A DNA stretch of 64,000 bases from Segatella copri (GTDB taxonomy: Bacteria; Bacteroidota; Bacteroidia; Bacteroidales; Bacteroidaceae), in NCBI RefSeq assembly GCF_949820605.1, contig NZ_CATKVU010000006.1, forward strand, positions 1,906,501-1,970,500, read 5' to 3'. This document shows positions 10,575 through 40,707 of the stretch, piece after piece; the first letter of the stretch is position 1, and each line of letters opens with the position of its first letter. A program made the position numbers and the translations under genes. The notes beneath the pieces were generated by a model. It ran no database searches. It worked only from the letters and a program-made list of their open reading frames with translations, and was not told where the DNA came from.

Positions 10575-10592
10575 TACTATACGAATAATTGA

Positions 10593-10631
10593 GAGGGTGT
10601 GTCATAAGTGGGATGACATGCCCTCTTTTTT
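10593..10631 (+). terminator. Terminator hairpin, start of repeat element A
   Basis: GAGGGTGTGTCAT (10593-10605) pairs fully with ATGACATGCCCTC (10613-10625), allowing two G-U pairs, and TTTTTT follows. It can terminate the nuclease transcript. The 17 bases GAGGGTGTGTCATAAGT also occur inverted at 40686-40702 and as a 15/17 match at 40358-40374, in both cases next to a 22-bp array. Confidence 0.8.
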
Positions 10632-10846
10632 CGCTACTTCAGCCACTTCATTCTGCAAACTCAGCCACTTCATTCTGCAAACAAATCCGTCTCATTCTGC
10701 TTACGAATTCGAATCTTCGAGACAACGAAGTCATATCTTCAAGCCAGCGCAATCGAATCTTCAAGCCAGCGCAGTCGGATCTTTAAACCAGCGCAGTCGG
10801 ATGTATCGGCTCAATGAAACGTATGAACTTGCGCAATGAAGAACAT
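10627..10846 (+). repeat. 22-bp-period intergenic array A (about ten units)
   Basis: Consecutive 22-bp units begin at 10627, 10649, 10671, 10693, 10715, 10737, 10759, 10781, 10803 and 10825. Units at 10649, 10671 and 10693 share CATTCTGC at their start; those at 10715 to 10781 share CTTC or CTTT at their start, and the last three of these share CAGCGCA. From 10693 on every unit ends in AT. The sequence drifts between units but no base is gained or lost. Open frames across it are by-products of the repeat and I do not call a gene. Confidence 0.75.
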
Positions 10847-10962
10847 GGTTTCATCAGCTTACTTCAAAGGCCGAATTTATTGAAAGAAAAATTATTTTTC
10901 TCAAATCTAATACCACTAATATCACACTTAGACTTAACCATCTGATTATAAGCGAATAACGC

Positions 10963-11003
10963 GTGGCAATAAGGGACGTTTTTATTGTCACCTTATTGCC
11001 ACC
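10963..11003. repeat. Perfect 12-bp inverted repeat with 11-bp direct repeats
   Basis: GTGGCAATAAGG (10963-10974) and CCTTATTGCCAC (10991-11002) form a perfect stem. The right part also holds 11-bp direct repeats, TTATTGTCACC (10982-10992) and TTATTGCCACC (10993-11003), half of the 22-bp period seen on either side. Function unknown. Confidence 0.6.
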
Positions 11004-11050
11004 TGTTACCACGCCCCTGGTAAGCTGCTCCGCTTGCCCTGAGGCTGCTG

Positions 11051-11138
11051 AAATTACGTCACGACGTAGCAATCAGTGCGTCACGACGTAGCAATCAGTG
11101 CGTCACGACGTAGCAACAGATACGTCGTGATGTAATTT
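11051..11138. repeat. 22-bp-period array B inside an 18-bp inverted repeat
   Basis: Three 22-bp units start at 11057, 11079 and 11101; the first two are identical and contain CGTCACGACGTAGCAATCAG. The block is bounded by AAATTACGTCACGACGTA (11051-11068) and its inverted copy TACGTCGTGATGTAATTT (11121-11138), with one mismatch. Each unit also holds a near-palindrome around ACGTCACGACGT. Confidence 0.75.
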
Positions 11139-11192
11139 CTGCTAACTCCTGCCCCATCAAGTAAACCTCATCTGAACTTCAAAAAAGCCTCA

Positions 11193-11479: not shown

Positions 11480-14400
11480 ATGTATCAACAACTGAAACGT
11501 GCCAGCATGGCACTGACCTTGAGTTCGGTTTGTTTCCTCGCCTTTGCGCAGAAAACAATCCAAGGTACCGTTAAGGATGCTAATGGCGACCCAATGATTG
11601 GTGTAACCATTACTGACCAGAATGGTAAAGCAGGTGGCATCACCGACCTTGACGGTAAGTTTACCATCCAGAACGCAGACCCTAATGCGGTCTTGACTTT
11701 CAGCTACATCGGCTGCAAGCCTAAGAAAGTTAAAGTAGGAAGTCAGAAAACATGGAACATCGTACTTGAAGATGACAACGCAGCCCTTGACGAGGTCGTT
11801 GTCGTTGGTTATGGTACTATGCGTAAACGCGACGTAACTGGTTCTATCGCATCTGTCAACTCAGAAAAGATAGCCGCTCGTGGTACTACCAATCTTGCTG
11901 AGTCTCTGCAGGGTTCTGTTCCTGGTGTCAACATCACCCAGTCTGGTAGCCGCGCAGGTGCAGGCTTCAATATTCAGGTTCGTGGACAGGCTTCTATCAA
12001 CAAGCAGGCACAGCCATTGTATGTTATCGATGGTGTAGTTTGCGACAACATGGACTTCCTCAATCCTGATGATATCGACCGCATCGACGTATTGAAAGAT
12101 GCATCTTCTACCGCCATCTATGGTTCCCGTGCCTCTGCCGGTGTCATCATGATTACCACCAAGGGCAGCAAGGGTGCAGACAAGGCACAGAAGGCTACCA
12201 TCTCTTATGACGGATATTATGGTATCAAGAAGTTGGCGCGCATGCCTGAGTTTATGGATGCCAACGAGTTTATGGATTATCGTTTTGCCAGATATACCAC
12301 GCTCGAAGGTAAGAACTACGATGGTTCTAGCCGCAAGGGTGTTGATGCCGAAGGACATCCACACTACATCATCAAGAATACCGACTTGAATTCTGCCTTC
12401 CTTGCCCGCAAGGGAGCAACCAGCTACAAAGACTCCAAAATTTATGAGCTGATGATGGATCCAAGTTTCGACGGTTACGACTGGAAGAAGATGGTTACCC
12501 GCACAGCCGCCCAGCAAAACCACTTCATCAGTGCTGCCGGTGCTACAGAAAAGGTAAACTACCGTGTAGGTATGGGTTATCAGGGCGAGGAAAACGTATT
12601 CAAAGGCAATGACTATGAGCGTTTCAACTTCAAGGGAGCAATGGATGCCAAGCTCTCCAAGATATTCGAGGCAGGTTTCTCTACCAACATGTCTATGAGC
12701 CGCACCCAGGACGTATGTACTGATGGTACTTATTCTCCATACGTGAATGCATTCTATTTTAACCCATTCGTATCTCCAACAGATGCAGATGGCAACCTGA
12801 TTCCTAACCCGGGAGCAAAGGCAGCCTTTGGTGCAGATGCAAATTTTACATCTACATATAACCCGCTCATCGATTTGAATGACGGCAACTACACCGACGA
12901 GACCAAGATGTACCGACTGATGGGTAACTTCTACCTGCGTGCCAACATTATCAAGGGATTGAAGTTTACAACCACCTTCTCTCCTAACTACTCTCACAAG
13001 CGCCAGGGAATCTTCTATGCAACAGGTCTGAACGAGGGTAATGACGTAGGTTCTACTTACTACCAGAAGAACAAGACCAACTTCGGATCCGTTGCCAATA
13101 CAACCCGTGTAGACTGGACGTGGGACAACCAGTTTGACTACAACCGCACATTTGGCGACCACACCGTTGGTGCCATGGCACTGTTCTCACTCTACAAGAG
13201 CAATACAGAATACCAGTATGAAGAAGGCAAGGGTATCGCCAGCGACCATACTACATTCCACAACCTGGGAACAGCCAGCGGCGACAAAACGCTCTCCTCT
13301 TCTTATACTGAGTCATCATTGGAGTCATTTGCTTTCCGTGCCAACTATTCCTACAAGGGTCGTTACATGGCTACAGCTACACTCCGTACCGATGGCAGTT
13401 CACGTTTCGCAGACGGCAACCGATGGGGCTGGTTCCCTTCTGTAGCTGCAGCATGGCGTATCTCAGATGAAGCTTGGATGAAGCAGTTCAACAACTGGCT
13501 TGATAATGCTAAACTCCGTATTTCATACGGTGTTACAGGTAACAACAATGTGGGTGACTATGTAACTATCGCTTCTGCTACAGGTCCATCTTATGTAACC
13601 ATTGACGGCAAAGAGGTACAGGGTTATCATCCTAACGGATTGATAAATACAAAACTCATCTGGGAGAAGGTAAAGGAATTTGATGTAGGTCTCGACCTGA
13701 GTTTCCTGAAAAACCGCATCAATGTAACAGCCGACTTCTACAACCGTCTTTCTGATGGTCAGATTATGTCACGTTCAGTGCCTATCGAAACTGGTGAGAA
13801 GACTTCAACCTTCAATGTAGGTTCTGTCCAGAATAGAGGTATTGAACTCGGTTTAAACTTTAACATCATCAACAAGAAAGACTTCTCCTGGAGTGCGAAC
13901 GTAAACTTCGCCCGCAACTGGAACAAGATTAAGGAGTTGAGTAATGGTAAGGTTGACGAGGTAGCCAACAACTGGTTTATCGGCGAACCACTGAATGTAC
14001 TCCGTGACTATACCCATACCGAAGTGATTACCGACAAGGGTGTAACCATGCACACCATGAATGGTGACAAGCACTATACCCTGAAGGAATTCTACGAGAA
14101 GTATGGCACTAAGTATAAGTGGTATGAAGGTCAGGTAGCCGTAAACGACTGGAACGATGACGGTAAGATTGACGACAACGATAAGCAGATTTATGGCTGC
14201 ACAGATCCTCGCTGGACCGGTAGTTTCTCTACCAATGTTTACTTCAAGGGTTTCGACTTCTCCATCATGTTCTATACCAAGAGCGGATTCTGGTCACGCA
14301 GCTACTTCCATGAGAAGTATATGAAGTATAGCGACCGTGGTAATGCCCACATGCAACTGGATTACTACATACCAAAGGGAGCACCAATCATCGATCATGC

Positions 14401-38910: not shown

Positions 38911-40338
38911 ATGACGAACAAGCATTATAAAGGAAATGAAATGATAAGGAGACTGGTGATAGGTGCCGATTTCGTTATTCTCAACATCGTACTGTTGTTC
39001 TATACCCAATATGGTCAAGAACTCATACCCGCGTATTTCGACAAAGCAACAAAGATCACCTTTTTTGTTGCCAATGCTGCCTTGTTCCTAGGCGAATACT
39101 TCTATTCCACCATCATTCATGTCAGAAAGATCGGGTTCCTGCAGGTTACAAGGCGTACTTTTTATCTGGCTGCAGCAACAACATTTTGTTTCTTTACCTT
39201 CTCAAGACTACTCGGTCACGGGGGAAAGATGTTCTCCTTCAGCATTATCTTCGGCATAACATTCTATCTGTCTCTCATCATAAGCCGACTCTGCGAGCTC
39301 AAATTACTAAAGTATTTCCGCTCTAAGGGCCGCAACTCACGCACCGTCGTCTTTGTAGGTAACGATCCTGCCGTGAGCGAGATGTACAAGACGATGACAG
39401 AAGATCCCTCGGCAGGTTATATCGTAAAAGGATATTATGCAGATGAAGACATCACTGATAATCCGGAAGGGTTGAAAAGAATAGGAAACATGAAACAGCT
39501 CAAAGAGATTATCTCTTCTACCATGAATGATACCATCAATGGTGAACCTTCCAATATTGACGAGGTTTTCTGCTGCCTGTCGCATAAAGATCCTGAGATC
39601 ATCAACATCATACACTTCTGTGATAAAAATGTGATACACTTCTACTACCTGCCACGTGTGTTTGGTGAGTACAAATTGCATCTTGATGCCCAGAATTTCA
39701 TGGGAAGGACGGTATATTCAAACCGCATAGAACCCCTAACAAGCACGTCAAACCGCATTATCAAGCGTAGCTTTGACATCGTGGTGAGCGGGCTTGCATG
39801 TTTGTGCATTCTACCATTCATTCCATTCATAGCTCTCATCATCAAGATTCAGAGTCCTGGTCCAATTTTCTTCAAACAGGCAAGAACGGGTCTGAATGGT
39901 GATACCTTCTACTGTCTTAAATTCCGTTCCATGCATGTAAACAAGGATGCAGACAAGGCACAGGCAACAAAGAACGACCCACGTAAATTTGCTTTCGGCA
40001 ACTTTATGAGAAAGACGAACATAGATGAGTTTCCTCAATTCTTCAATGTTCTTAAGGGAGACATGAGTATTGTGGGTCCGCGCCCTCACATGCTGCATCA
40101 TACAGAGGTATATGGAAGCCTGATAGATAAGTATATGGTTCGCCACTTCTCCAAGCCGGGTATCACAGGTTGGGCTCAGGTTACCGGGTTCCGTGGTGAG
40201 ACCAAGGAGCTCTGGCAGATGGAGGAACGTATCCGCCGTGATATCTGGTATATAGAGAACTGGTCGTTCTGGCTTGATATCAAGATTATCTTCATGACAG
40301 CCAAGAGCATTATCTGCCCTGACAAGAATGCTTATTAG
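38911..40338 (+). CDS. Exopolysaccharide priming glycosyl-1-phosphate transferase (polyprenyl-phosphate type)
   Basis: Starts surface polysaccharide synthesis by moving a sugar-phosphate to undecaprenyl phosphate. The 475-residue product has four or five N-terminal TM helices (about 12-135), a central Rossmann-like domain (TVVFVGNDPAVSEMY near 148), one more TM helix (about 290-312) and the C-terminal bacterial sugar transferase domain (KRSFDIVVSGLACLC, FKQARTGLNGDTFYCLKFRS, GDMSIVGPRPHM, KPGITGWAQVTGFRGET). WcaJ/WbaP type. -7 box TACCTTTG at 38826-38833. It is the only such gene here, with no other glycosyltransferases following. Confidence 0.9.
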   Translation: MTNKHYKGNEMIRRLVIGADFVILNIVLLFYTQYGQELIPAYFDKATKITFFVANAALFLGEYFYSTIIHVRKIGFLQVTRRTFYLAAATTFCFFTFSRLLGHGGKMFSFSIIFGITFYLSLIISRLCELKLLKYFRSKGRNSRTVVFVGNDPAVSEMYKTMTEDPSAGYIVKGYYADEDITDNPEGLKRIGNMKQLKEIISSTMNDTINGEPSNIDEVFCCLSHKDPEIINIIHFCDKNVIHFYYLPRVFGEYKLHLDAQNFMGRTVYSNRIEPLTSTSNRIIKRSFDIVVSGLACLCILPFIPFIALIIKIQSPGPIFFKQARTGLNGDTFYCLKFRSMHVNKDADKAQATKNDPRKFAFGNFMRKTNIDEFPQFFNVLKGDMSIVGPRPHMLHHTEVYGSLIDKYMVRHFSKPGITGWAQVTGFRGETKELWQMEERIRRDIWYIENWSFWLDIKIIFMTAKSIICPDKNAY

Positions 40339-40357
40339 GAGTATATAAAAAGAAAAA

Positions 40358-40374
40358 GAGGATGTGCCATAAGT
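40358..40374 (+). repeat. Left boundary copy of the 17-bp repeat element
   Basis: GAGGATGTGCCATAAGT matches GAGGGTGTGTCATAAGT (10593-10609) at 15 of 17 bases and is inverted relative to the copy at 40686-40702, so the 22-bp array between them is flanked by inverted repeats. Confidence 0.65.
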
Positions 40375-40396
40375 TTGGAAAATAGTTGGCGCATAA

Positions 40397-40669
40397 CAGT
40401 TGGCCACCGCATGCACATCAGCTGTTGTGCATGCGCATATCAGCTGTTATGCAAGCGCACAACAGCTGTTGTGCGACCGGAGATACTAACTGTCACAACA
40501 ACATATACTAACTTTTCCACCAACATATACTAGATATACTAGCTCTTTCAACAACATATACTAGCTCTTCCAACAACATATCCTAGCTCTTCCAACAACA
40601 TATTCTAGCTCTTCCAACAACATATCCTAGCTCTTTCAACAACATATCCTAGTTTTTCCAACAACAAGA
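40397..40669 (+). repeat. 22-bp-period intergenic array C with a change of repeat sequence
   Basis: Units start at 40397, 40419, 40441, 40463, 40485 and 40507, then after a 9-bp partial unit (ACTAGATAT, 40529-40537) at 40538, 40560, 40582, 40604, 40626 and 40648. The first four units carry CAGTTG or CAGCTGTT with TGC-rich palindromes; the later ones share CTAGCTCTTCCAACAACA. Four of the 22-mers (40560-40647) are near identical. The phase is unbroken where the motif changes at 40485. It is noncoding. Confidence 0.85.
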
Positions 40670-40670
40670 A

Positions 40671-40707
40671 GAGGGTGTATCATTAACTTATGACACACCC
40701 TCTTTTT
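40671..40707 (+). terminator. Terminator hairpin closing repeat element C
   Basis: GAGGGTGTATCAT (40671-40683) pairs with ATGACACACCCTC (40690-40702) with one mismatch, followed by TTTTT. Its right arm with the loop is the inverted copy of the 17-bp sequence at 10593-10609. It may end plus-strand transcripts from the priming transferase gene. Confidence 0.75.

What the first reader, a model, noticed from the sequence alone, without database searches (positions are those of the whole stretch)
40397..40669. Array that keeps a strict 22-bp phase while its repeat sequence changes
Twelve 22-bp units and one 9-bp partial unit fill 40397-40669. The first four are CAGCTGTT/TGC-rich; from 40485 on the units become CTAGCTCTTCCAACAACA-like. 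The change occurs exactly on the 22-bp grid. Simple slippage of one unit gives identical copies and does not explain two different motifs on one ruler. Either length (about two helical turns) is under selection, or the array grew by a process that copies length more than sequence.
Basis: seen in the sequence. Interest (0 to 1): 0.78.

Follow-up and report, generated by a model that had tools for sequence, protein, structure and literature searches.

The report
Mobile element carrying 22-bp repeat ruler
A gut bacterium of the Prevotella/Segatella group carries a small dispersed DNA element filled with 22-base repeats, and unrelated repeat arrays in its relatives favour the same 22-base step even though their letters differ, so spacing seems to outlast sequence.

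Summary
The array is real but is one part of a dispersed composite element. Window 40355-40705 has inverted ends (AAAGAGGATGTGCCATAAGTT / AACTTATGACACACCCTCTTT), a terminator-like hairpin at one end, a block A of 22-bp units and a fixed block B of palindromic 22-bp units. The nearest held genome (G001) carries at least ten copies. The 'motif change' is the A/B boundary, inherited with the element. Of 12 copies with hairpin and core, 8 hairpin-to-core distances agree modulo 22 (4-7 steps); core to right end is 98-99 bp in 11 of 12. The phase is not strict: the window copy holds one 9-bp insertion. With G001 and the window the 76 arrays form 52 sequence clusters. In the G001, order and phylum samples 22 is not the mode. 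I read this as a MITE with an internal minisatellite, close to BrickBuilt of Porphyromonas gingivalis (23 nt), whose period persists through neighbour-copying while sequence drifts. Whether 22 bp is selected is open; duplication statistics hint that it is.

The parts
38911..40338 (+). upstream gene, sugar-transferase-like (WcaJ-type, name recalled); the element follows its stop codon
   Evidence: ORF list; 98.8% DNA identity over 734 bp with G001
40355..40375 (+). left terminal inverted repeat AAAGAGGATGTGCCATAAGTT
   Evidence: 0 matches in 100 shuffles
40391..40478 (+). block B: four 22-bp units, palindromic GCACAACAGCTGTTGTGC type; fixed-length module
   Evidence: inverted repeats; same module in G001, G163 and L031
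40479..40667 (+). block A: 22-bp units (ACATATCCTAGCTCTTCCAACA type), number varies between copies; includes the tandem pair ATATACTAG at 40525-40542 that shifts the phase by 9 bp
   Evidence: 31-bp step at 40503-40564; copy-length comparison
40666..40707 (+). terminator-like hairpin AAGAAGAGGGTGTATCAT...ATGACACACCCTCTTTTT; its 3' arm is the right inverted repeat
   Evidence: inverted repeat I5; similar solitary hairpins beside genes in G001
40685..40705 (-). right terminal inverted repeat AAAGAGGGTGTGTCATAAGTT
10590..10631 (+). second copy of the hairpin (GAGAGGGTGTGTCATAAGTGGGATGACATGCCCTCTTTTTT)
10632..10828 (+). second 22-bp array with drifting units (TCAGCCACTTCATTCTGCAAAC, then TTCAAGCCAGCGCAGTCGAATC)
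   Evidence: G001 orthologue keeps the grid with other units
11052..11137 (+). third 22-bp array, palindrome ACGTCnnGACGT, four units
   Evidence: four units also in the G001 orthologue, with other inner bases

Best explanation
The feature is a non-autonomous, MITE-like composite element with an internal minisatellite. SHOWN: inverted ends; a hairpin that looks like an intrinsic terminator; a constant palindromic 22-bp module (B); a module (A) whose length changes mostly in 22-bp steps; many dispersed copies in one genome; related B arrays without these ends beside them in a second species. SHOWN for the wider class, in the samples taken: noncoding arrays in this family favour exactly 22 bp although their units fall into 52 sequence clusters, and in seven arrays examined units resemble near neighbours more than distant ones. 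INFERRED: arrays grow and are rewritten by copying of adjacent units (slippage or unequal exchange at one-unit offset). That keeps the register automatically while mutation changes the letters, and the element then carries the mosaic to new sites. INFERRED, less sure: the 22-bp step, two helical turns, is kept by selection at the DNA level, for instance because palindromic units are spaced sites for a DNA-binding dimer. No protein was identified.
For: Ends and hairpin. Dispersal: G001 has 36 matches to the end sequence with up to 2 mismatches, reversed control 0, and 32 BLAST pieces of the element on both strands (pieces, not copies). Twelve copies with hairpin and core (10 of G001, L031, the window): 8 of 12 hairpin-to-core distances are 18 mod 22 (106 five times, 128, 150, 172), two more are 15 mod 22 and 22 apart, L023 is 9 mod 22, the window is 18 mod 22 plus 9; core to right end 98-99 bp in 11 of 12 (binomial 8e-9 for 8 of 12, which ignores common descent). 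Step change at one orthologous site: window 9 steps plus 9 bp, G001 6, flanks 98.8% and 96.4% identical. Decay of in-phase identity (window: 0.74, 0.64, 0.53, 0.44 at 22, 44, 66, 88) in 7 arrays. Period peak. Isolated two-copy duplications are not biased to 22 (1 of 19, periods 12 and above) while those with a further unit are (20 of 42), Fisher 0.001, which speaks for retention rather than birth bias. 32 of 76 arrays are more palindromic than column permutations at p<0.05. No G-U excess on the transcribed strand of co-directional palindromic arrays (37 G-T vs 56 A-C), so symmetry looks DNA-level.
Against: No transposase with these ends was found (one 2.6-kb stretch examined, L308, only short ORFs) and no constant target duplication or clean empty site. 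Four of 12 copies leave the main 22-bp series. 44 of 76 arrays are not clearly palindromic, compensatory change inside arrays is weak (excess 33.6 vs 8.5 sd 11.1 in 27 palindromic arrays; 58.3 vs 41.2 sd 13.7 in all 54), and palindromes of unlike sequence are not placed at 22-bp spacing clearly above background. In the G001 sample 21-bp arrays are as common as 22. 10 of 32 arrays at lag 21 are also palindromic, so symmetry is not special to 22. Of 18 lag-22 pairs masked as coding, 5 lie in ORFs of 172-410 aa, so some may sit in genes.
Confidence: 0.72

Rival explanations
1. Selection for length: the arrays are spaced sites (two helical turns) for DNA-binding proteins or a nucleoid protein, and sequence is free or species-specific.
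For: Sharp peak at 22 across 52 sequence clusters; palindromic units enriched; no G-U asymmetry; isolated duplications not biased to 22.
Against: No matching peak at 11 or 33 bp (8 and 4 arrays, against 63 at 22), which plain helical phasing would allow; several unrelated unit types within one genome, so no single sequence-specific protein fits; only a weak common profile (information 4.19 vs null 3.89 sd 0.10); weak covariation.
Confidence: 0.35
2. Pure descent: the 22-bp arrays come from an old satellite that seeds new sites and drifts beyond recognition; length is conserved because only unit-length exchanges keep register, with no function.
For: G163 and G001 share block B, while the attached units differ and stay on the grid; decay of identity with distance; orthologous arrays of window and G001 are rewritten on the same grid.
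Against: Almost no residual common profile; families with 23, 21 and 40-44 bp also exist.
Confidence: 0.35
3. Mutational birth bias: an enzyme in these bacteria makes tandem duplications of 22 bp.
For: Exact full-unit tandem repeats also peak at 22 (6 of 17 noncoding); 5 of 18 lag-22 pairs masked as coding lie in ORFs of 172-410 aa.
Against: Isolated two-copy duplications show 1 of 19 at 22 bp; 13 of the 18 pairs masked as coding lie in ORFs of at most 136 aa, which may be spurious.
Confidence: 0.12
4. RNA-level function: hairpin arrays in transcripts (3' stabilisers or small RNAs), mobilised by a REP-associated Y1 transposase.
For: Both strands of the element fold better than shuffles (z -8.4 and -6.3); arrays are over-represented between convergent genes (22 vs 13.1 expected of 61 placed).
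Against: No G-U excess; arrays occur between divergent genes at about the expected rate (11 vs 13.4); G145 and G147 have 22-bp arrays but no Y1_Tnp match; all 15 Rfam matches are below gathering scores.
Confidence: 0.12

Closest known systems
BrickBuilt MITE of Porphyromonas gingivalis (Klein et al. 2015, PMC4596501; abstract, section 5, part 1 of section 7 and section 8 read)
   Same: Short intergenic element with inverted ends, internal tandem minisatellite of about two helical turns (23 nt), variable unit number, 19 dispersed copies, neighbouring terminators, long predicted stem-loops; same order Bacteroidales (recalled).
   Different: Unit 22 bp and different sequence; ends GAGGGTGTGTCATAAGT versus GAGACCTTTGCA; here a second, fixed palindromic module lies on the same grid; no parent IS found here, whereas BrickBuilt ends match IS5-family ISPg elements.
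MITE464/PgRS of P. gingivalis (41-nt repeats; as described in PMC4596501)
   Same: MITE with internal tandem repeats; arrays of 40, 41 and 44 bp were also seen here in G137.
   Different: Unit length and sequence; flanks of its repeats are themselves repetitive.
22, 23 and 41 nt direct repeats of P. gingivalis W83 (cited in PMC4596501; the original genome paper was not read)
   Same: Same unit length reported in the same order.
   Different: Sequence and locations were not given in what I read, so no comparison was possible.
PINSR, 188-bp repeat of Prevotella intermedia (PMC4755523, section 3.4 and passages read)
   Same: Dispersed intergenic repeat in Prevotella.
   Different: No terminal inverted repeats; no internal 22-bp tandem structure is mentioned there.
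BOX elements of Streptococcus pneumoniae (recalled; passages in review PMC10969869)
   Same: Modular element with a repeated inner module of variable number (recalled).
   Different: Inner unit about 45 bp (recalled), unrelated sequence and phylum.

Membership tests
MITE (miniature inverted-repeat transposable element) | terminal inverted repeats | tested here: met
   23-nt arms, 91% complementary; recurrent pair in G001
MITE (miniature inverted-repeat transposable element) | short, no transposase inside, many dispersed copies | tested here: met
   about 350 bp, no ORF of 60 aa or more lies within it; ten G001 sites with hairpin and core
MITE (miniature inverted-repeat transposable element) | cognate full-length IS with the same ends | tested here: inconclusive
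   only L308 (2.6 kb) examined: none; whole genome not scanned for it
MITE (miniature inverted-repeat transposable element) | target-site duplication or empty site | tested here: inconclusive
   no constant duplication seen by eye in the flanks; no clean empty site
BrickBuilt | 23-nt unit and GAGACCTTTGCA ends | tested here: not met
   22-bp units and different ends (PMC4596501 Table 2)
CRISPR | repeats separated by unique spacers | tested here: not met
   units are contiguous
REP element mobilised by RAYT | Y1 transposase in the genomes that carry the arrays | tested here: not met
   G145 and G147 carry 22-bp arrays without a PF01797 match; 17 of 26 genomes match overall, G001 among them
Known Rfam RNA family | score above gathering threshold | tested here: not met
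   15 matches up to E 5, all below gathering

The most novel reading that the evidence does not exclude
Prevotella-type genomes maintain a class of intergenic, satellite-like DNA in which unit length (22 bp, two turns) is selected while sequence is free and often palindromic: a bacterial counterpart of eukaryotic satellites whose monomer length outlives their sequence, presumably read by a protein that measures spacing.
Probability: 0.3. Interest if true: 0.82.

Novelty: new variant of a known kind. Interest (0 to 1): 0.6.

Why it matters
Bacterial minisatellites are usually catalogued by sequence. Here the conserved property across species appears to be the repeat step, not the letters. If selection holds it, there is an unknown spacing-reading factor in abundant gut bacteria; if descent holds it, these arrays are a fast-evolving, register-keeping satellite useful for strain typing and for measuring tandem-array turnover. 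Either way the question can be tested with strain collections already sequenced.

Tried and rejected
Local origin of the motif switch: rejected, the same two-part array recurs at other loci. RAYT/REP system: not required. RNA hairpin selection: no G-U excess. Rfam family: none above gathering. A hidden common consensus of the 22-bp arrays: only slightly above permuted columns. Palindromes of unlike sequence placed independently on the grid: no clear excess at 22; the peak at 33 in that test is a geometric consequence of symmetric 22-bp arrays. Coding repeats: of 18 lag-22 pairs first masked as coding, 13 lie in ORFs of at most 136 aa and 5 in ORFs of 172-410 aa; the latter were not followed up. 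Plasmid collection: no match. Parent IS at 3076900-3079500 of G001: not found. Empty site: the region after the wcaJ-like gene in L031-L035 and the hydrolase gene in 60 genomes (table only, the returned loci were not read) gave no clean orthologous site besides G001. The first Fisher test used totals of 18 and 41; the right totals are 19 and 42, rerun with p 0.001 again. One search printed nothing because the search condition was wrong; redone.

Full report
OBSERVATION. The array exists. TRF reports period 22 at 40413-40474, 40483-40532 and 40534-40666, and the unit table agrees. One detail is wrong: TRF also gives a 31-bp step at 40503-40564. The word ATATACTAG stands twice at 40525-40542, so the later units stand 9 bp off the first ones. 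One shuffle per set of the noncoding DNA gave nothing at lags 10-60.

ANATOMY. The array lies between a 23-nt pair of inverted repeats, 40353-40375 and 40685-40707, 91% complementary; the right one also forms a hairpin with 40666-40683, followed on the + strand by a T run. The end sequence occurs three times in the window and in none of 100 shuffles: the two ends here and one at 10590, which opens a second 22-bp array (10632-10828). A third array at 11052-11137 has the palindrome ACGTCnnGACGT. Block B (40391-40478) is made of palindromes such as CGCACAACAGCTGTTGTGCG; block A is not palindromic.

DISPERSED COPIES. The window's own assembly is not held. The nearest genome, G001, shares 52% of sampled 31-mers and has 36 matches to the end sequence with up to two mismatches, against 0 for the reversed pattern. 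Thirty loci read out on a 22-bp grid show, at several sites, the same hairpin, block A, block B and far end; other sites have the hairpin alone beside a gene, a different 22-bp array (L027; L017 by eye) or CGCCCTGAAAGGGC-type repeats (L003/L011, L016). In 60 genomes of the genus, 6 match the element: G001 with 32 pieces, G163 with 21, and four (G135, G140, G147, G157) only in the hairpin end.

STEP LENGTH. In 12 copies holding hairpin and core (ten of G001, L031, the window), the hairpin-to-core distance is 106 five times, and 128, 150, 172 once each, all 18 mod 22. L007 and L172 are 103 and 125 (15 mod 22), L023 is 119 (9 mod 22), the window 225, that is 18 mod 22 plus the 9-bp insertion. A thirteenth copy (L180) has no hairpin within 450 bp. 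Core to right end is 98 in nine, 99 in two, not found in one. So A changes mostly by whole units and B is fixed. At the orthologous site G001 has 6 steps and the window 9 plus 9 bp, with flanks 98.8% (734 bp) and 96.4% (860 bp) identical.

ANOTHER SPECIES. Of twelve G163 loci given, ten sites were laid on the grid (L171 and L179 were not printed). All ten have block B. Six (L161, L163, L165, L167, L169, L173) share one long mosaic of about 10-14 units; four differ in the outer units. The end sequence, with up to 3 mismatches, does not stand beside these arrays; among the twelve loci it occurs once, in L163, about 800 bp away. The units beside B differ from those of G001, yet stay on the 22-bp grid. 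The orthologue of window 10590-11140 in G001 is also rewritten on the same ruler, with a 23-bp run of TTGTACAAC units beside it.

IS 22 SPECIAL? TRF (score 50 and above) on noncoding DNA, periods 12-60: other genomes of the genus 21 of 39 arrays at 22 (15 of 33 sequence families); 80 wcaJ-type loci, mostly titled Prevotella or Prevotellaceae, 14 of 35 (12 of 30); 20 genomes of the family 4 of 7 (3 of 6); window 4 of 4; G001 sample 7 of 43 (4 of 29); order 2 of 12; phylum 0 of 1. A lag scan with two-unit windows gives, for lags 20/21/22/23/24: genus 4/10/35/5/0, wcaJ-type loci 4/7/19/0/2, family 1/5/9/0/0, G001 6/12/10/3/4, window 0/0/3/0/0, order 2/2/2/2/0, phylum 0/1/0/0/0, E. coli 50 kb none. 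Outside G001 and the window, with one window size for each lag: 11 bp 8, 21 bp 21, 22 bp 63, 23 bp 5, 33 bp 4, 44 bp 35 (the doubled step), and 14 bp 18. Against an even spread over lags 20-24 the excess at 22 has p 1e-12, 1e-6, 8e-4, 0.15 and 0.5 for genus, loci, family, G001 and order; arrays of one family in one genome are not independent, so these overstate. The 76 arrays of the five Prevotella-type sets fall into 52 clusters. The samples are first-contig or evenly spaced stretches; the order and phylum samples are small, and more could not be had.

HOW IT COULD WORK. In-phase identity falls with distance along seven arrays examined, as expected if units are copied from neighbours and then mutate; such copying keeps the register whatever the letters become. 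It does not by itself say why unrelated arrays share 22. Isolated two-copy duplications show no bias (1 of 19), while those with a further unit do (20 of 42), so 22 seems favoured at retention or growth, not at birth; counts are small and not independent. Symmetry points to DNA: 32 of 76 arrays are palindromic at p<0.05 (3.8 expected), as are 10 of 32 at lag 21, and mismatches in the stems of co-directional palindromic arrays are G-T 37, A-C 56 on the transcribed strand. Compensatory change is weak and palindromes of unlike sequence are not clearly set at 22 bp. Of 61 placed arrays, 22 lie between convergent genes (13.1 expected), 11 between divergent (13.4), 28 between co-directional ones (34.5).

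KNOWN RELATIVES. The nearest described thing is BrickBuilt, a MITE with a 23-nt minisatellite in Porphyromonas gingivalis (PMC4596501; abstract, section 5, part 1 of section 7, section 8 read). That paper also mentions 41, 23 and 22 nt repeats in strain W83. The element here fits that kind but differs in ends, unit and its fixed second module. Nine paper searches listed no paper on 22-bp arrays in Prevotella; two of them had far more hits than were listed (409 with 20 shown, 2,481 with 15 shown), and the library is open-access only, so this is weak evidence of absence.

VERDICT. The array is a new member, with a modular twist, of the MITE-plus-minisatellite kind. The family-wide preference for 22 bp across unrelated sequences is the part worth following.

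Noticed in passing
window 10590-10631 and 40666-40707; G001 loci L001, L002, L004, L008, L010, L013, L019, L022, L024, L028, L030: Similar terminator-like hairpins (GAGGGTGTGTCATAAGT...CACCCTC plus T-rich tail) stand alone near genes, as if terminators spread by copying.
   Followed up: partly
L003/L011 (one site) and L016 in G001: Elements with the same ends but with CGCCCTGAAAGGGC-type palindromes inside instead of 22-bp arrays.
   Followed up: no
L296 reverse complement, about 600-810, and L031 7156-7244: A 23-bp array of TTGTACAAC palindromes next to 22-bp arrays; same step as BrickBuilt.
   Followed up: no
window 11055-11137 and L296 reverse complement about 1396-1475: Orthologous four-unit palindrome arrays: partly homogenised in the window, diverse in G001 (inner bases AC, CC, GC, GT), a possible case of unit homogenisation.
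   Followed up: no
L187-L189, L268-L273 (G137): A species-specific family with TGACGCAAATTAC-type units on a 22-bp step, plus 40-41 bp arrays.
   Followed up: no
window about 12054-12185: A stretch of about 100 bp has many diverged DNA matches in G001, G145, G163 and G137, probably a common domain or gene family.
   Followed up: no
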